From the NCBI RefSeq assembly GCF_022508225.1, contig NZ_JAETXJ010000004.1, positions 1 through 64,000 of the forward strand: DNA of 64,000 nt, in the 5' to 3' direction. The notes beneath the pieces are model-generated. The model saw only the letters and a list, made by a program, of their open reading frames with translations. It had not been told where the DNA came from and made no database searches. Within the stretch, counting starts at the first letter, position 1, and each line of letters begins with the position of its first letter. Shown here one piece after another: positions 1-6,641 of this stretch. This DNA is from Desulfovibrio sp. UIB00. GTDB lineage: Bacteria > Desulfobacterota > Desulfovibrionia > Desulfovibrionales > Desulfovibrionaceae. The position numbers and the translations under genes are program-made.

Positions 1-512
1 ACACCATCCACGGCTCCATCGGCCCTGATTGCTTTGGCTACCGCACCCCGCTGGATGCTTATTCGCTTTCCTACCACAACTACTTTGGCGCGCTCATGGG
101 CGCGCTGCCGAATGGCCGCAAAGCCGGTGTCGCTCTCACAGACGGCAGCGTTTCGGCCACCCCGGGCACAGACCATGAAGGCATCACGGCGCTTATCAAG
201 GCTGGCGCACAGGCTATCGACACCGTGCGGTATGGCGCAAACCACTTCAACGTCAAGCTCACGCCTGCTGCTCTGGCTGGCCCCGCCGGCGAAAGGCTGC
301 TGGTTTCACTTATAAAAACCTATTGCGACTTTGATGGTTCGCACATCCAGTTCAACTGCGTTTCCTCCGAAACGCTTAAAGACGCGCAGAAAAAGCCGGA
401 GGATTACCGCAACCTGGTGGTTCGCGTGGCTGGCTTCAGCGCGTATTTCACCCGGCTGGACAAGGGCGTTCAGAACGAAATCGTCAAGCGCACGGAATAT
501 AATAACTTTTAA
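1..512 (+). CDS. Glycyl radical enzyme, C-terminal part (5' end outside window)
   Basis: The reading frame is open from base 3 to the TAA at 510-512 and gives the last 169 residues of a pyruvate formate-lyase/diol dehydratase-type glycyl radical enzyme. The glycyl radical loop RVAGFSAYF lies near the C-terminus, followed by the usual short tail. The region ALPNGRKAG...DGSVSATPGTD is also typical of the family. The active-site Cys segment lies upstream and is not visible, so the substrate class (choline, isethionate, glycerol, hydroxyproline, aryl acids or other) cannot be decided. The activase gene follows at once on the same strand, which fits an enzyme/activase operon. The family call is firm and the substrate is unknown. 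Confidence 0.9.
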   Translation, partial: TIHGSIGPDCFGYRTPLDAYSLSYHNYFGALMGALPNGRKAGVALTDGSVSATPGTDHEGITALIKAGAQAIDTVRYGANHFNVKLTPAALAGPAGERLLVSLIKTYCDFDGSHIQFNCVSSETLKDAQKKPEDYRNLVVRVAGFSAYFTRLDKGVQNEIVKRTEYNNF

Positions 513-586: not shown

Positions 587-1483
587 ATGAGCCAAGGAAT
601 GATTTATAACATCCAGCGTATGTCCATTCAGGACGGGCCGGGGATACGCACCACCGTTTTTCTCAAAGGGTGCCCGCTACGATGTTTATGGTGCAGCAAT
701 CCTGAATCTCAGCAGGTTGCCCCGCAGCTTCTGGTTTTCAGCGACCTTTGCACAGGATGCGGCGCCTGCCTGGCCGCCTGCCCCAGTGGTGCGGCAATGC
801 GCCAGGAAGACGGAAAATGCGGAAAAATCGCTGAAAAATGCACATCTTGTGGTGCCTGTGCGGCAGTTTGCCCCAACAGGGCCAGAGAAATCAGCGGCAA
901 GACAATGACCGTTGATGAGGTAATGGAGATTGTCCACAGGGATTCAGCTTTTTATGCAAATTCCGGCGGCGGAGTCACCTTTGGCGGTGGTGAGCCAACA
1001 ATGGGCGGAGATTTTTTCATTGATCTGTTGCAGACAGCCCACGATGACGCACTGCATACCGCAGTGGACACCTGCGGGTTCTGTCCTGAAGACCGCTTTG
1101 AAAAAACCCTGAAGCTTGCCGACCTGCTGCTGTTTGACTGCAAGCACATGGACCCGGTGCAGCACAAAGAACTTACAGGGCAGGACAACGCTCTTATTCT
1201 GAAAAATCTGCAATCTGCACTTCTCTCGGGTATTGAGGTGCGAATCCGTATGCCACTTATGCCGGGCTTAAATGACAGCGATGAGAATTTTGCTGCCATG
1301 TCCAGCTTTTTGAACAAATTCGGGCAACAAAACATAGAAATCATGCCTTGCCACATGTTTGGTACCAGCAAATACAGGGCGTTAAACAAGCCATTGCCGC
1401 CTGTGAGCCAATATACACCAGATTCGCTTGAAAAAACGCTGATCAGGATGAAAAGGCATGGTTTGAAGTATACTATCATATAG
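587..1483 (+). CDS. Glycyl-radical enzyme activating protein (radical SAM)
   Basis: This 298-residue protein would put the glycyl radical on the enzyme encoded just upstream, using S-adenosylmethionine and a reduced 4Fe-4S cluster. The radical-SAM motif CPLRCLWC (CxxxCxxC) is near residue 30. It is followed by an inserted two-cluster ferredoxin domain with CTGCGACLAACP and CTSCGACAAVCP, as in activases of the glycerol/choline/isethionate group rather than the short pyruvate formate-lyase activase. The SAM-binding GGGEPTMGG segment is present. The ATG at 587 gives a normal N-terminus (MSQGMIYNIQRMSIQDGPG); an upstream ATG at 539 would add 16 unlikely residues. It lies 74 bases after the enzyme and its stop overlaps the Shine-Dalgarno of the next gene. 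Confidence 0.92.
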   Translation: MSQGMIYNIQRMSIQDGPGIRTTVFLKGCPLRCLWCSNPESQQVAPQLLVFSDLCTGCGACLAACPSGAAMRQEDGKCGKIAEKCTSCGACAAVCPNRAREISGKTMTVDEVMEIVHRDSAFYANSGGGVTFGGGEPTMGGDFFIDLLQTAHDDALHTAVDTCGFCPEDRFEKTLKLADLLLFDCKHMDPVQHKELTGQDNALILKNLQSALLSGIEVRIRMPLMPGLNDSDENFAAMSSFLNKFGQQNIEIMPCHMFGTSKYRALNKPLPPVSQYTPDSLEKTLIRMKRHGLKYTII

Positions 1484-1491
1484 GAGGTAAA

Positions 1492-1779
1492 ATGTTCTCA
1501 GTGGCGATTGATGAAGCAATGCTGCAAAAACTCAGCGGCATGCTTCAGGACGAAGATGAAGGAACCAGCGTCAGGCTCAGGGAATATAAAGTCGGCGGAG
1601 GCTGACATTCAAAAATCGTACTCGGTCTGGGTATGGACGAGCCAGATGAAGATGAAGACGAGCAGATTTCTGTAGGCAATGTGCCGTTTACGGCAGAAAA
1701 AGATTTTCTGCTCAAACACGGCAGGGCCTTCACACTTTCTTATGTTGAAGGTCAAGGGGTAGTCGTGGCTCCGGCGTAA
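1492..1779 (+). CDS. IscA/HesB-like small protein, probable selenoprotein (in-frame TGA = Sec38)
   Basis: From the ATG at 1492 (Shine-Dalgarno AGGAGGT, good spacing) the frame runs 95 codons to TAA at 1777-1779, with one internal TGA at 1603-1605. The surrounding protein is KVGGG-U-HSKIVLGLGMD. The next gene has KVGGGCHSQITLGLGMD at the same residue, so TGA replaces the conserved Cys38. The downstream part is intact and clearly homologous (FTAEKDFLLKHG). A possible bacterial SECIS stem-loop (ctcggtc/ggacgag, one mismatch, 7-base loop) starts 15 bases after the TGA. HesB-like selenoproteins are a known family. The role is inferred as a thiol/selenol or iron-sulfur-related partner of the glycyl radical operon. 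The alternative is a nonsense mutation. Confidence 0.82.
1621..1641 (+). promoter_or_regulatory. Candidate bacterial SECIS element
   Basis: A stem of four pairs, one G-A mismatch and two more pairs (one a G-U wobble) closes a loop TGGGTAT, about 22 bases from the in-frame TGA. An alternative pairing (TCTGG with CCAGA) is also possible. The position fits bacterial SECIS elements, but the fold is modest and no folding program was run. Confidence 0.4.
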
Positions 1780-1859
1780 TAATGCTCTGGGGCATCCTCC
1801 CGTGCCGATACGCAACGCTCTCATATACGAAATAAAATCCGACACTGCGGAGGTTTCAC

Positions 1860-2153
1860 ATGTTTAAAGTTACAATAGATGATGCAATGCTGCAAAAGCT
1901 GCGCACAATGCTGGAAGAAGAAGACGAAGGCACTTGCGTACGGCTTCGTGAATACAAGGTCGGCGGCGGATGCCATTCCCAAATTACTCTTGGTCTTGGG
2001 ATGGATGCACCAGACGCTGAAGAGGACGAGCAGACCCAGATTCACGGCGTTCCTTTCGTGGCAGAAAAAGACTTTCTGCTGAAGCACGGCAACGCATTTT
2101 CCCTTTCATTCAGTGGGGATAAGGGCGTAGTTGTTACGGCAACAGCGGAATAG
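1860..2153 (+). CDS. IscA/HesB-like small protein, cysteine form
   Basis: This 97-residue protein is a tandem paralogue of the gene just upstream, with the same length and layout (MFKVTIDDAMLQKL..., EDEGTCVRLREYKVGGGC, VPFVAEKDFLLKHG). Cys38 stands where the first copy has TGA. A second Cys at position 26 is Ser in the first copy. The fold is that of the iron-sulfur carrier family, but the C-terminal CGC motif of classical IscA is absent, so cluster transfer is not assured. A Shine-Dalgarno GGAGG precedes the ATG. It is the last gene before a strong terminator. Confidence 0.85.
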   Translation: MFKVTIDDAMLQKLRTMLEEEDEGTCVRLREYKVGGGCHSQITLGLGMDAPDAEEDEQTQIHGVPFVAEKDFLLKHGNAFSLSFSGDKGVVVTATAE

Positions 2154-2278: not shown

Positions 2279-3184
2279 TCAATCCAATACTGATCGCCTG
2301 CCATCACAGGGTGACTTGTGTGACGACGCAATCAAAAAAATCATGCTAATCAAAATACAAGATAATCCCAGCAGAGTTTGTTGAGTGCATGGTTCGTCAA
2401 GCACCATAAAACCAAGCACGGCTGCCCCGATAGGTTCGGCAAGCCCCAACGTGGAAGTCACAGCCGCAGAAGTGGTTTTCATGCCGTAGAGCACCAGGGT
2501 AAATGAGAGGCTGGTTGTCAAGGTGGCAAGATCTGCGGCGACCAACGCCCCACGCGGCGTCAAGAGCCATCCAAGCGGCTGCGTACAGAGCAGGGGCGCA
2601 AGACTCAGCCCCCCGATCAGAAAGATGACCGTCATGATCTGCGATGGGTCATGCCGTTGCAGCATCGGCTTGATGGTCACAAGAAATACAGCGTAGCTGC
2701 ATGCCGCAAGCACAGCCAGCCCCAGCCCCGGCATACTGAACTGCCCTTGGCTGCCTGCACCCAGCGTCAGCACCGCAAGGCCGCACAAGGCCAAGGCCGT
2801 GCCAGCATACCAGACTCTGGCAGGTTTCTCTTTCAAAAAAAACCATCCAAGAATTCCCACGACTATGGGGCAACCGCCAATAGCAACCATTGTGCATACG
2901 GCCACCCCAATCTGCTTGCAGGCTTCAAAAAAAAAGAGCTGATAGCCAGTCAGCCCTGCGGCAGAAATAACGATATACAATTTCGGCCAGCCAGCCGGTC
3001 GGGGGGTGTTGCGTGAAATCAGCCCCCACAGCAAAAGCACCAGCCCCCCGCCCAGAAGGCGGATGGCGCCGACGGCAAGGGGCGTAACACCTTCCGGCGC
3101 AAGGGCCTGTGCCGTGCCGGAAGTGCTTGCGCAAAACGCGCCGCACAAAATAGCCAACGGCGCTTTAAGAGAATATAAAGACAT
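2279..3184 (-). CDS. EamA-family (drug/metabolite transporter superfamily) permease
   Basis: This 301-residue protein of about ten hydrophobic segments has the two-repeat EamA layout. The N-terminal LAILCGAFCASTSGTAQ...AIRLLGGGLVLL and the C-terminal TTSLSFTLVLYGMKTTSAAVTSTLGLAEPIGAAVLGFMVLDE are characteristic. It sits in the inner membrane and probably exports a metabolite or amino acid; the substrate is unknown. It is transcribed leftward towards the 22-bp terminator and has no partner gene, although a permease gene follows upstream on the same strand. Confidence 0.85.
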   Translation of the reverse strand: MSLYSLKAPLAILCGAFCASTSGTAQALAPEGVTPLAVGAIRLLGGGLVLLLWGLISRNTPRPAGWPKLYIVISAAGLTGYQLFFFEACKQIGVAVCTMVAIGGCPIVVGILGWFFLKEKPARVWYAGTALALCGLAVLTLGAGSQGQFSMPGLGLAVLAACSYAVFLVTIKPMLQRHDPSQIMTVIFLIGGLSLAPLLCTQPLGWLLTPRGALVAADLATLTTSLSFTLVLYGMKTTSAAVTSTLGLAEPIGAAVLGFMVLDEPCTQQTLLGLSCILISMIFLIASSHKSPCDGRRSVLD

Positions 3185-3297
3185 GACGGTGTCTCCATAT
3201 TGAAAGCAATGTACCCCTTGTCTGATTCGGCAAGGGGTACATTTTACTTTTTTGAAGGGATTATCCGACAGGTTTAATCCTGTGGCAGGTTGCAGGC

Positions 3298-4764
3298 CTA
3301 AGAGGTGAAGTACACAGCAATATCTTTACTGCCCAGAATATTTTCCCTGACTTCAACTTCCGGAAGGGAAACCCAGTTTTTCTTACTGGTACTGTAGAAA
3401 ATAAATCCGAGCACTATCCAGATGCCAAGGCAGGCAAAGGGTGCACCGCCGATAAGGGCCGGAGAGCCGGGGATAAGCAGGAGCACAATGCACAGTACGG
3501 CGGTGATGGTTCCGATAGCGCAGCAAAGCAGCTTGAAGGCCTTGTTGGGAACATTAACACCACCATTGATGACGCGGCGGGCGGCCAGGCAGGTAAAGAG
3601 ATAGCCGATGCCCGTACCAACGGAGCTCATATCAACCGTCCAGGCGATAGCCGAACGACCAGCGAATGGTGTCAGAAGCGTGATGATGACGATAAAGAGC
3701 ACCGCGTTGTAAGGCGTGTGGTACTTGGGATGGATTTTGCCAAACCATTCGGGAAGGATCCGGCTGCGGGACATGCTGAGCAGCAAACGGCTGGCCGCGA
3801 TAAAGAACCCGTTGATGCCTGTAAGGACTGCACCAAATACGGCGCATGCAAGAACAACACTGCCGAACCGGCCAAAGGCCATGGTTGCCACTTCGCCAGC
3901 GCCCCAGGCGGCACCGCCGGTTGCGCGCTGCGCATCCAGTTTTGCCAGCATTTCCGGATAGGATATAGCCATACCCACTGCAAGCATTACCATGGCGTAC
4001 AGGATAACGCCTACGACAATGGCAATTATCATGATGTTTCTTGCCCGGGCGGGGTCAAAGGAAAACTCTTCTGCCGCCTGGGGAACGGTATCAAATCCGA
4101 CGAAAAGGAAGGGGGAAATGGCAAAAATCAGGAGCACGCAAGACAGAGGCGTACCATTCTCTGAAAAACCGGGAGTAAGATTACTCAATTGACTCGAATC
4201 CAGAGCAACCACACCAGCAAACAGCGCGACAATGCCAATTGTCAGCATAAAAGCCAAAACAAGCTGAATTTTGCCTGCTATGCCAATGCCCCGGTAGTTG
4301 ATCCAGCCAAAAATCAGGGTTCCGGCCGTCATCAACAGCACTTCTCCTGTGTATACCTGCCATCCGGCTATGGCATACAACGGGCCGAATTCAAAAATAC
4401 CTGGGAACAGAAACCGAAAGATCACCGACAGCGCGGCGATATCAATGGCCACAATGGCTATGTAACCGATTACAAGCGCCCATCCGCAGACAAACGCGGC
4501 TGTGGGGCCAAAACCGATATAAGCATAAGCAAATGCGCCGCCTGCCACAGGCGCGTACTTGATCATATAGCTAAGACACACTGCAACAAAACAAATAAGG
4601 AACGCACCGATCATGAAGCCGTAAAGCGTTCCAAGCGGCCCGGCCTTGGGCAGAAACATATCCCCCGGCAACACAAAGCAACCCCAGCCGACAATGGAGC
4701 CCAGCGCCAATGCGCAAACCTGCATTGGCGATAGTGTTTTTTCAAGCTGAACCTGTTCCGACAT
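3298..4764 (-). CDS. APC-superfamily amino-acid permease
   Basis: This 488-residue protein has about twelve membrane segments. The start (LSPMQVCALALGSIVGWGCFVLPGD) is the typical first helix of APC permeases, and FAISPFLFVGFDTVPQAAEEF matches the family's sixth helix. It probably imports an amino acid or amine at the inner membrane with proton or sodium coupling. The gene stands alone, 113 bases upstream of the EamA gene on the same strand and divergent from the DUF4125 gene. The substrate cannot be read from the sequence. Confidence 0.88.
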   Translation of the reverse strand: MSEQVQLEKTLSPMQVCALALGSIVGWGCFVLPGDMFLPKAGPLGTLYGFMIGAFLICFVAVCLSYMIKYAPVAGGAFAYAYIGFGPTAAFVCGWALVIGYIAIVAIDIAALSVIFRFLFPGIFEFGPLYAIAGWQVYTGEVLLMTAGTLIFGWINYRGIGIAGKIQLVLAFMLTIGIVALFAGVVALDSSQLSNLTPGFSENGTPLSCVLLIFAISPFLFVGFDTVPQAAEEFSFDPARARNIMIIAIVVGVILYAMVMLAVGMAISYPEMLAKLDAQRATGGAAWGAGEVATMAFGRFGSVVLACAVFGAVLTGINGFFIAASRLLLSMSRSRILPEWFGKIHPKYHTPYNAVLFIVIITLLTPFAGRSAIAWTVDMSSVGTGIGYLFTCLAARRVINGGVNVPNKAFKLLCCAIGTITAVLCIVLLLIPGSPALIGGAPFACLGIWIVLGFIFYSTSKKNWVSLPEVEVRENILGSKDIAVYFTS

Positions 4765-5238
4765 AATAGTACTCCCAGCACTAAAGAGTGGGCCAGAGAA
4801 TCTGCTTCGACAATTGCATCGTGCACCCCGGGGGATGTCGAAACAAAATTCACTGGCTGTTGCACCTGTCCACTGGTTATTCCCTCATGTAGCTGCCGGC
4901 TGGGAATAACTGTCTTCGTGACTGTTGAGCAAAGGCTGTGCCAAATAGTGAAAAAAATCTCCAGAACAGTCTGACTACCGCAATATGTAGGCATATTGGT
5001 CTATTAGTATGAAAAATCATTAGCTTCCATAAACTATTTTTTATATTTCGATGAATTTTTTCCTTTTTGCAAAAATTTTTTTCTCATTTTGAAATACTAC
5101 AATTTATTGGCGGCGTTCAACGACTTGCAAAAGCCACTAATCGCTCTGGCACTGTATTTGCTTAACGACATCATGTGAATTTGGTTACAAATTCCGAAGC
5201 AACAATTCATTTCAACCTTTTTAAGACATGGAGCAAAA
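4765..5238. other. AT-rich intergenic control region
   Basis: These 474 bases separate the divergent permease and DUF4125 genes. The stretch 5000-5100 is very AT-rich and probably holds promoters for both. No coding region, RNA gene or clear riboswitch was recognised. Confidence 0.5.
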
Positions 5239-5778
5239 ATGACTAACAGCAACGACGCATCCATCATCAGTGAAATAATCGCTTTGGAGCTGAAAATGTT
5301 CCAGGCAGTTAATAATCTAGGTGGCAAGGCGGACTGCCAAAATCAGCCTGAAGCTTTCTGCACCATGCGTCAGATTGTATATGAAGTTCTCTCACCACAG
5401 GTTCTTGCGGCATGGCTGAGTGATCTGAGAGATGCTGAACGCGCAGGCCGAAACGTAATGACGGAAAAATACGCGTTGATGTGTGGAAGTATTGAAATGC
5501 CCGAAATCTCCCAAGCCATAAAGAGCATAATTTCTTGCGAACTGGCATGGCTTCAGACTGCGGTGAAGAAACATCCCGATTATTTTGGCGGCAATGATGC
5601 AGATTTTTGTCGGTATCTGCTGTGCGAATTGCTGATGTATTCAGAAACAACTCTGAACGCATATGCGCAATGCATTGACGATGCTCAATCCACAGGGCGG
5701 AACCTTGTTCTGGAACGGATTGAAAATATAAAAAAACTTTTATGTTCCAATGCTATACACGCACCATCAGTACACTGA
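5239..5778 (+). CDS. DUF4125-like protein
   Basis: This 179-residue soluble protein has two similar halves. It begins SIISEIIALELKMFQAVNN and contains CQNQPEAFCTMRQIVYEVLS, GRNVMTEKYALM, SIISCELAWLQT and YSETTLNAYAQCIDDA. This pattern (EIIxxELxMFxxV, CQxxPxxFxxMR, GRNLMTEKYA) is what I recall of the uncharacterised DUF4125 family from anaerobes. The function is unknown. The Shine-Dalgarno GGAG precedes the ATG. It lies 45 bases before the TauE-like gene and probably shares its transcript. Confidence 0.72.
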   Translation: MTNSNDASIISEIIALELKMFQAVNNLGGKADCQNQPEAFCTMRQIVYEVLSPQVLAAWLSDLRDAERAGRNVMTEKYALMCGSIEMPEISQAIKSIISCELAWLQTAVKKHPDYFGGNDADFCRYLLCELLMYSETTLNAYAQCIDDAQSTGRNLVLERIENIKKLLCSNAIHAPSVH

Positions 5779-5823
5779 CGCAGATTGCTTTGGATCATTT
5801 GAAACAAAAGGAATAAAAATGTT

Positions 5824-6555
5824 ATGGAGTTAGAAGTAATTGTGGTCGTCTGCGCATGGTTCATGGGAGGATTTATTTCTGGAGTCAGCGGAATAGGCGG
5901 CGCCATGTTTGCAGTTCCGATTGCGGCGATGTTCATTCCCATACAGCAGGTTATTGTCCTCAGCTGTATTCTCAACCTTGCCATGGACGGCACGCTGACG
6001 GCTCTGCATTTTCGTTTTTGCCGAGTTGGTGCGTTGGGGCCGCTCCTGGCAGGGACAATACCAGGGTCGGTGGCAGGCCTGTTCATCTTGCAGATGGTTC
6101 CAGGACAAATCTTGCAGGGAATTGTTGGTGTACTGCTGCTGGTATTTCTGCTCTGGCAACAAGTTTTTCGTATTCGTGAAAAAGGAACAGAATCATGGCT
6201 GGTAGGCGGGCTTGCAGGCTGCGCAGCCGGAGTACTTGGAACGGCAATCTCTTTTGATGGGCCACCTGTTGGCGCTTACGGCTTATACGCAGGCTGGCAG
6301 CCGAGGATTTTTCTGGGAACGCTGGGTGTGTTTTTCATACTCAGGGGGACACTCACTTGCGCATTACAGGCATATTCCGGCCTTTATTCACCAGAAGTAA
6401 TTCAATATGCGCTATACGGCTTTCCAGCCACCATACTGGGAACATTCTGCGCATTTCCTGTTGCCAAATGGATTAACCCTGATGCATTTCGCAACATACT
6501 CAAGGTTATTATCGCTACGGCCGCAATTGTTTGCGTTTACCGTGCATTACTTTAA
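5824..6555 (+). CDS. TauE/SafE-family sulfite or organic-anion exporter
   Basis: This 243-residue membrane protein has about eight helices and the family's duplicated GG-rich repeats (FISGVSGIGGAMFAVPIAAMF and GCAAGVLGTAISFDGPPVGAYG). The family moves sulfite, sulfoacetate or other anions across the inner membrane. An ATG at 5820 opens a five-codon frame only, so the start is 5824. It follows the DUF4125 gene closely and converges on the old tRNA-Leu terminator at the left edge of the island. The substrate is inferred only from the family. Confidence 0.85.
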   Translation: MELEVIVVVCAWFMGGFISGVSGIGGAMFAVPIAAMFIPIQQVIVLSCILNLAMDGTLTALHFRFCRVGALGPLLAGTIPGSVAGLFILQMVPGQILQGIVGVLLLVFLLWQQVFRIREKGTESWLVGGLAGCAAGVLGTAISFDGPPVGAYGLYAGWQPRIFLGTLGVFFILRGTLTCALQAYSGLYSPEVIQYALYGFPATILGTFCAFPVAKWINPDAFRNILKVIIATAAIVCVYRALL

Positions 6556-6641
6556 CAGGGAAAACTTGCACGGCCAGTCAAAGGCTACCGCATTACTACC
6601 GTTGCGGGGTTTGGTGCAAGATGGTGCGGAAAAACCAACGG

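What the first reader, a model, noticed from the sequence alone, without database searches (positions are those of the whole stretch)
1492..2153. Tandem selenocysteine/cysteine pair of IscA/HesB-like genes behind a glycyl radical enzyme and activase
In the sequence, two adjacent paralogues are colinear, and the first has TGA exactly where the second has TGC (residue 38, context KVGGG-x-HS). The frame downstream of the TGA is intact. HesB-like selenoproteins are established as a family. The tandem Sec and Cys forms and the place behind a glycyl radical enzyme/activase pair are less expected. Inference: the pair offers a selenium-replete and a selenium-poor version of a thiol or metal-handling step for an oxygen-sensitive radical enzyme. 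The Ser/Cys difference at residue 26 may tune the function.
Basis: partly seen in the sequence, partly recalled or inferred. Interest (0 to 1): 0.78.

Follow-up and report, generated by a model that had tools for sequence, protein, structure and literature searches.

The report
Selenocysteine/cysteine gene pair serving radical enzyme
Next to the genes of an uncharacterised oxygen-sensitive radical enzyme, this Desulfovibrio carries two sister copies of a small iron-sulfur-carrier-like protein, one using selenocysteine where the other uses cysteine, and relatives show that the small protein nearly always travels with that enzyme, so it looks like a dedicated, unstudied selenium-containing partner.

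Summary
Window 1492-1779 is a 95-residue frame with in-frame TGA at codon 38; its neighbour (1860-2153) has TGC there. Both pass the NF033940 (ErpA-related) cut-off. The TGA is a real selenocysteine codon: selA, selB and tRNA-Sec are present, the frame after it is conserved, and a hairpin 18 nt downstream (loop GGUCU) pairs in 98.6% of cells over 24 Sec genes, with a compensatory change, frozen synonymous codons, and decay in Cys copies. The wider story is better: this A-type-carrier-like protein is tied to one uncharacterised glycyl radical enzyme (GRE) subfamily (37 of 39 GRE hits have it just downstream), and follows the GRE even where the activase gene lies on the other strand. That GRE lacks the usual active-site Glu (GCV[SGAT], not GCVE). 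Sec/Cys tandems arose more than once, nearly always Sec first. Most likely it is a GRE-dedicated accessory partner whose loop-tip Sec/Cys38 does metal or thiol/selenol chemistry; that last step is inferred. Selenium-rich/poor switching is possible but no regulation supports it. The Ser26 idea fails: Ser26 is private to this genome. It is a GRE-linked variant of HesB-like selenoproteins, not found in a 2026 inventory of 119 families.

The parts
3..512 (+). C-terminal 169 aa of a glycyl radical enzyme (gene cut by the contig start; glycyl-radical Gly codon at 432-434 in RVAGFSAYF). The N-terminal 631 aa are on contig C14:51328-53220 of the same genome.
   Evidence: PF01228 Gly_radical E 1.5e-28; 99% identical to the G040 homologue, N-terminal part found on C14; homologue below every GRE equivalog cut-off
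587..1483 (+). Radical-SAM GRE activase with ferredoxin-type [4Fe-4S] motifs
   Evidence: TIGR02494 358.7 bits, cut-off 174.35; Radical_SAM and Fer4
1482..1488 (+). Ribosome-binding site AGGAGGT of the Sec gene, overlapping the activase stop codon
   Evidence: sequence; conserved in G040
1492..1779 (+). Sec-form ErpA-related (A-type-carrier-like) gene, 95 aa with Sec38
   Evidence: NF033940 123.8 bits; read-through frame; pN/pS; AF2 model pLDDT 91.7 with IscA fold
1567..1569 (+). Codon 26 of the Sec copy, AGC (Ser); Cys in the G040 Sec copy and the other close Sec copies
1603..1605 (+). TGA codon for selenocysteine 38
1618..1634 (+). SECIS apical hairpin GUACUC-GGUCU-GGGUAU: loop begins 18 nt after the TGA, 6-bp stem
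   Evidence: 24 Sec genes: 98.6% of cells paired, compensatory A-U/G-C at stem position 3; stem kept 5.8/6 in Sec and 4.2/6 in Cys genes, p 6e-8; invariant synonymous codons
1849..1853 (+). Ribosome-binding site GGAGG of the Cys gene
   Evidence: sequence; conserved in G040
1860..2153 (+). Cys-form ErpA-related gene, 97 aa, Cys38 = TGC at 1971-1973
   Evidence: NF033940 140.6 bits
2172..2223 (+). Very strong inverted repeat right after the Cys gene, likely the end of the operon
   Evidence: fold of 2165-2225: -48.3 kcal/mol, z -11.5; no poly-T tail, so the consensus terminator scan did not list it

Best explanation
The two genes encode dedicated partners of the glycyl radical enzyme encoded just upstream. 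They are small acidic proteins of the IscA/ErpA (A-type carrier) fold that lack the C-terminal Cys-x-Cys of true carriers. They keep one reactive residue, at the tip of the GGGx loop where carriers have their first cluster ligand: selenocysteine in copy 1, cysteine in copy 2. Shown by computation: the TGA is a Sec codon, the protein has the A-type fold, and it is tied to this one GRE subfamily rather than to the activase. Inferred: it binds the GRE (as HPAD-gamma, BSS-beta/gamma and MASS accessory subunits do, though with another fold) and there uses the Sec/Cys38 selenolate or thiolate, either as a metal or cluster ligand or as a low-potential thiol/selenol reductant, to mature, gate or rescue the GRE's radical or active-site Cys. 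Both copies appear to be made from one operon; the Cys copy needs no selenium, so it would also cover selenium shortage, and the two may form mixed dimers.
For: Sec decoding: selA, selB, tRNA-Sec; hairpin with the same 18-nt spacing and GGUCU loop in 21 Sec genes, and covariation; codons +6 to +9 (LGLG) are CTC GGT CTG GGC/T in 21/21 Sec copies but use 3-4 codons each in the Cys copies. GRE dedication: of 39 GRE hits at 47% identity or more in 199 family genomes, 37 have the small gene downstream on the same strand; the two without it lie on the most distant branch. Partner is the GRE, not the activase: in six loci the activase is on the opposite strand and in L075 it is 5 kb away, yet the small gene still follows the GRE by 16-200 bp. 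The same arrangement occurs in a genome of another family (G212). Fold: Foldseek top hits IscA; VIA Z 10.1-10.6 to IscA, SufA and DsrR. In three genomes a third tandem paralogue keeps the fold signature but lacks Cys/Sec38, which suits a subunit more than a cluster carrier.
Against: No biochemical data, and no complex prediction was possible with these tools. Known GRE accessory subunits use HiPIP or rubredoxin folds, not the A-type fold (PMC12358834). Operon linkage also fits a maturation factor that never stays bound. Divergent members keep Cys-rich C-terminal tails, which could ligate a cluster and favour carrier function in those lineages. One more distant GRE (L080, 311 bits) also has a Sec copy, so the dedication is not absolute.
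Confidence: 0.5

Rival explanations
1. Dedicated Fe-S carrier: the proteins deliver or repair [4Fe-4S] clusters of the radical-SAM activase or of another operon protein, with Sec/Cys38 as a cluster ligand in a dimer.
For: A-type carrier fold. NCBIfam name 'ErpA-related iron-sulfur cluster insertion protein'. Sec/Cys38 sits in the GGGC motif shared with ErpA (family-model match). In most loci the gene directly follows the activase. In at least five loci a C_GCAxxG_C_C putative redox protein lies in the operon.
Against: The C-terminal Cys-x-Cys of IscA/ErpA is absent in the window clade. The gene follows the GRE, not the activase, when the two separate. Most other GREs with their activases do without it. 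Cys-less paralogues exist.
Confidence: 0.3
2. One reading: a selenium-rich/selenium-poor pair for one step, switched or buffered by selenium supply. This can be true together with either mechanism above.
For: Sec and Cys forms replace each other across the family; Cys-only genomes include three of one genus in which selA was not found. Tandems arose more than once, nearly always Sec first. Sec/Cys isoform switching is established in Methanococcus maripaludis (PMC11097638).
Against: No regulatory site or convincing promoter between the genes; both appear to be in one operon. At least nine genomes have a Sec copy only. Cys copies in some lineages carry their own conserved changes (GGGCRSR, LGLALEEK in Mailhella-type genomes).
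Confidence: 0.35
3. The TGA is an ordinary stop: the first gene is a pseudogene or encodes only a short peptide.
For: TGA is the default stop in bacteria; Rfam gives no SECIS match here; single-sequence folding of the hairpin is not exceptional (z -0.9).
Against: Conserved frame after the TGA in more than 20 genomes, pN/pS near 0.05 after the TGA, SECIS covariation and frozen codons, Sec machinery.
Confidence: 0.02

Closest known systems
HesB-like selenoprotein family (TIGR01911, motif UxGP) and IscA_HesB_Se (NF038090)
   Same: Small A-type-fold protein with Sec at the first carrier Cys; Cys homologues exist; function unclear (a HesB-like selenoprotein of M. maripaludis was identified by 75Se labelling, PMC11097638). 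The same Desulfovibrio genome has a Sec/Cys pair of the NF038090 kind beside mfd on contig C6.
   Different: The window genes match NF033940 instead (TIGR01911 does not match them), have UHS rather than UxGP, lack the Cys-rich tail, and are tied to a GRE.
A-type carriers IscA / SufA / ErpA
   Same: Fold (VIA Z about 10); GGGC loop with the first ligand position.
   Different: No C-terminal Cys-x-Cys; Sec in place of Cys in copy 1; gene linkage to one enzyme.
DsrR (Allochromatium vinosum, PDB 2k4z)
   Same: Best VIA match (Z 10.6); an A-type-fold protein encoded with one enzyme system (dsr).
   Different: From my own knowledge, DsrR lacks the cluster cysteines and acts on dsr expression; here Sec/Cys38 is conserved.
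Accessory subunits of GREs: HPAD gamma, BSS beta/gamma, MASS beta/gamma/delta (PMC12358834)
   Same: Small proteins (HPAD gamma 9.5 kDa) encoded with the GRE; roles in solubility and gating of the glycyl radical domain.
   Different: HiPIP or rubredoxin folds with [4Fe-4S] or Fe sites; none has Sec or the A-type fold.
GREs such as trans-4-hydroxyproline dehydratase HypD, CutC, glycerol dehydratase
   Same: Same enzyme superfamily: glycyl-radical motif RVAGF and active-site Cys.
   Different: This GRE has GCV[SGAT] where HypD and glycerol dehydratase have GCVE, and falls below every equivalog cut-off.

Membership tests
NF033940 ErpA-related family | Score above the curated cut-off (65 bits) | tested here: met
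   123.8 and 140.6 bits
HesB-like selenoprotein (TIGR01911) | Score above the TIGR01911 cut-off | tested here: not met
   Only the C6 pair matches, below the cut-off; the window genes do not match at E 0.001
HesB-like selenoprotein (TIGR01911) | UxGP motif (PMC13188914, Table 1) | tested here: not met
   Motif here is GGGUHS
Bacterial selenoprotein gene | In-frame TGA with conserved frame on both sides and Cys homologues at that position | tested here: met
Bacterial selenoprotein gene | SECIS hairpin just after the TGA | tested here: met
   (by comparison of genes; Rfam silent)
Bacterial selenoprotein gene | selA, selB and selC in the genome | tested here: met
Bacterial selenoprotein gene | selD in the genome | not tested
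Bacterial selenoprotein gene | Selenium in the protein | not testable with these tools
   needs 75Se labelling or mass spectrometry
A-type Fe-S carrier (IscA/SufA/ErpA) | A-type fold | tested here: met
A-type Fe-S carrier (IscA/SufA/ErpA) | Three Cys ligands (one Cys, then Cys-x-Cys near the C-terminus) | tested here: not met
   C-terminal Cys-x-Cys absent in both proteins
A-type Fe-S carrier (IscA/SufA/ErpA) | Cluster binding and transfer | not testable with these tools
   needs biochemistry
GRE accessory subunit | Encoded together with the GRE | tested here: met
   37 of 39 GRE hits of this subfamily
GRE accessory subunit | Stable complex with the GRE | not testable with these tools
   needs co-purification or complex modelling
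GRE accessory subunit | HiPIP- or rubredoxin-type metal-binding fold of the known subunits | tested here: not met
   A-type fold instead
Known GRE classes (CutC, HypD, HpsG/HpfG, indoleacetate or hydroxyphenylacetate decarboxylase) | Equivalog score | tested here: not met
   G040 homologue (98-99% identical) far below all cut-offs; the genome's other GREs do reach CutC and HpsG cut-offs
GRE dehydratase/lyase classes | Active-site Cys-x-Glu | tested here: not met
   GCVS in window relatives, GCV[GAT] in others; the loop of the window's own GRE lies on C14 and was read from the 98% identical G040 homologue

The most novel reading that the evidence does not exclude
The small protein is a stoichiometric subunit of a new GRE class, and its selenol (or thiol) takes part in the radical chemistry itself, for example by supplying a hydrogen atom or electron to repair or reset the glycyl/thiyl radical site: the first selenoprotein subunit of a glycyl radical enzyme.
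Probability: 0.2. Interest if true: 0.88.

Novelty: new variant of a known kind. Interest (0 to 1): 0.63.

Why it matters
HesB-like selenoproteins still have no clear function two decades after they were described. Here one subfamily is pinned to a single enzyme, which makes the function testable. It also marks a GRE subfamily without the usual catalytic Glu, so an undescribed radical reaction in sulfate reducers, some from the gut (one relative is Desulfovibrio piger), is likely. The recurrent Sec/Cys tandems are natural matched pairs for asking what selenium buys over sulfur in one small protein.

Tried and rejected
Ser26/Cys26 tuning: rejected, as Ser26 is confined to this genome. Sec38 and Cys26 as an intramolecular redox pair: thought unlikely, since in the model Cys26 starts strand 26-34 and residue 38 is at the far tip of that hairpin (secondary structure only, no distances). 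Single-sequence folding of the SECIS region: not exceptional; only the comparison of genes shows it. Papers joining GRE, HesB and selenocysteine: none in the library. Some searches failed on wrong coordinates, and read two GREs on the wrong strand, redone. Gene conversion between tandem copies was considered as an alternative to repeated duplication and is not excluded. Two Cys residues outside residue 38 as a conserved second ligand: Cys26 is conserved in the close subfamily but not in the divergent clades, so it is not a general ligand.

Full report
What is there. The window is the first 64 kb of contig C4 of a 3.46-Mb, 20-contig genome. Its relatives are Desulfovibrio and allies (record titles; the congener G190 has the contig length of D. 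piger ATCC 29098, and G040 the size of the single-chromosome genome of D. desulfuricans IC1, PMC6675984; both identifications are inferred). Reading TGA as Sec, 1492-1779 encodes 95 residues with U38; 1860-2153 encodes 97 residues with C38. They are 69% identical and both pass the NF033940 (ErpA-related) cut-off. A GRE C-terminus (3-512) and an activase (587-1483) precede them on the same strand. The GRE looks truncated only because the contig starts there: residues 1-631 of the 815-residue G040 homologue lie at the end of contig C14. A very strong inverted repeat (2172-2223, -48 kcal/mol, z -11.5) follows the Cys gene, so the order is GRE, activase, Sec copy, Cys copy, likely terminator.

The TGA is a selenocysteine codon. 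The genome has selA, selB on C8 and a tRNA-Sec with anticodon TCA; selD was not searched. Across the family, 27 TGA-bearing genes were collected from 26 genomes. Between this genome and G040, the part after the TGA shows one nonsynonymous and six synonymous differences (pN 0.008, pS 0.149). After the TGA come 18 nt, then loop GGUCU closed by a 6-bp stem (window 1618-1634). In 24 Sec genes 98.6% of cells pair, against 19-48% when the partner is slid by 1-3 columns. The third pair is A-U in the window, G040 and one more gene and G-C in the rest, a compensatory change; two further pairs show one-sided changes. The Cys copies have lost the stem (4.2 of 6 pairs against 5.8; p 6e-8, though the genes are related and not independent). 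The codons for L-G-L-G at +6 to +9 are CTC GGT CTG GGC/T in 21 of 21 Sec copies of the close subfamily but vary in the Cys copies, which keep nearly the same amino acids there. From my own knowledge, loop GGUCU and this spacing are those of the E. coli fdhF SECIS. An ordinary stop codon is excluded for practical purposes.

Who keeps company with whom. In 199 genomes of the family the G040 GRE finds 39 close homologues (47-100% identity). For 37 of them the small gene lies downstream on the same strand (in G000 and G092 the GRE itself is split over two contigs). The two exceptions (G095, and the second copy in G107) form the most distant branch. Of three still more distant GREs in the fetched loci, two lack the gene (344 and 367 bits) and one has a Sec copy (L080, 311 bits). 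In most loci the order is GRE-activase-small gene. In L070 and L118-L120 it is GRE-small gene-activase. In six loci (L060, L069, L071, L073, L074, L116) the activase is on the opposite strand, and in L075 it is 5 kb away, yet the small gene still starts 16-200 bp after the GRE. The pattern extends to a genome of another family in the phylum, G212, with GRE, Sec, Cys and a third Cys-less copy. So the partner is the GRE. In the wider phylum sample (395 genomes) G212 was the only genome outside the family with the gene.

The GRE is not a known class. The G040 homologue falls far below every NCBIfam GRE equivalog (best subfamily score 515 bits against a cut-off of 678). The other three GREs of this genome reach the cut-offs of CutC (one) and HpsG-type sulfopropanediol dehydratase (two). 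Its active-site loop reads GCVSTG (GCVG, GCVA or GCVT in relatives), where HypD, HplG and glycerol dehydratase have GC[VI]E. Loss of that Glu argues against dehydratase or C-X lyase chemistry of the usual kind (inference). Neighbours include an amino-acid permease, a TauE-type exporter, an EamA transporter and DUF4125, a divergent sigma-54 regulator upstream in relatives, a C_GCAxxG_C_C putative redox protein in at least five relatives and a DUF169 protein in others. The substrate is unknown.

What the small proteins are. AlphaFold2 gives a confident model (pLDDT 91.7). Its matches are IscA (Foldseek E 2.5e-4; VIA Z 10.1-10.5), SufA (Z 10.1) and DsrR (Z 10.6). The conserved GGG[U/C] corresponds to the first ligand Cys of ErpA (model match; the residue assignment is from my own knowledge of ErpA). 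The C-terminal Cys-x-Cys of true carriers is missing here, while divergent members keep a Cys-rich tail. Residue 38 therefore stands alone at a loop tip. Some tandem third copies lack Cys/Sec altogether, and so does the copy beside a second GRE in G190: the fold is kept without the reactive residue.

Sec and Cys alternate, repeatedly. Twelve genomes have an adjacent Sec-Cys tandem with Sec first; one (G160) has Cys first; G127 is split by a contig end; in G036 the Cys copy is 12 kb away. Nine of the searched genomes have a Sec copy and no Cys copy (G026, G117, G132, G154, G178, G179, G185, G190, G193); G001, G056, G107, G131 and G176 have only a Cys copy. selA was not found in three of those five (G056, G107, G131, all one genus, so possibly one event) but was found in 24 of 27 TGA-bearing genomes; the misses there are two incomplete assemblies (83-84%) and one fragmented one. 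The window pair groups with its G040 counterparts (95-96% bootstrap), and one origin of all Cys copies in this subfamily is rejected (AU p 0.014), although gene conversion could mimic this and the alignment is short. The Cys copy evolves faster than the Sec copy (pN/pS about 0.27 against 0.05 after codon 38, few sites).

Mechanism. I commit to a GRE-dedicated accessory partner whose loop-tip selenolate/thiolate acts on the GRE or its metal environment (0.5). Steps shown by computation: Sec decoding, fold, GRE dedication. Steps inferred: physical binding, and which chemistry residue 38 does. A cluster carrier for the activase remains a serious rival (0.3), weakened by the missing Cys-x-Cys and by the gene following the GRE rather than the activase. 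The selenium-supply idea is compatible with either (about 0.35 as the reason for keeping two copies, not exclusive): since each gene has its own ribosome-binding site, the Cys copy would still be made when the TGA is not read, but there is no sign of regulated switching.

Known or new. HesB-like selenoproteins are an established family (PMC1794560), given in a 2026 inventory of 119 families as TIGR01911 with motif UxGP (PMC13188914). A search of that text found neither ErpA nor NF033940. The window genes do not match TIGR01911 and have motif UHS. No held paper joins HesB, selenocysteine and glycyl radical. The library holds only part of the literature, so this is a new variant as far as could be checked. 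GRE accessory subunits known so far have HiPIP or rubredoxin folds (PMC12358834).

Noticed in passing
G000:C6:60135-60859 (L007:6136-6860, minus strand): A second Sec/Cys tandem of another A-type family (IscA_HesB_Se, NF038090), Sec copy first, directly before mfd; the family has members in 185 of 199 relatives, commonly as a TGA copy and a Cys copy close together.
   Followed up: partly
G000:C14:51328-53220 and window 3-512: The GRE gene is split by a contig break, with about 15 residues missing between C14 and C4; the divergent sigma-54 regulator seen upstream in G040 has a 94% match on C14.
   Followed up: yes
L067:3480-3755, L069:6405-6680, L116:8573-8845: A third tandem paralogue that keeps the family signature but has lost the Cys/Sec loop (RRGSYDN or similar).
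   Followed up: partly
L117:9165-9428 (G190, probably Desulfovibrio piger): A second GRE of the same subfamily is followed by a small A-type-like gene without Cys/Sec at the loop (GGDRH).
   Followed up: no
L080:2724-6549 (G160:C5): A more distant GRE (311 bits) with activase is followed by its own TGA-bearing A-type-like gene.
   Followed up: no
L053 about 6102-6630, L070:4253-4825: A C_GCAxxG_C_C putative redox protein in several of these GRE operons, after the activase and before the small gene in most.
   Followed up: partly
window 2279-6555: EamA transporter, amino-acid permease, DUF4125 and TauE-type exporter genes recur near this GRE operon in relatives and may hint at its substrate.
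   Followed up: partly
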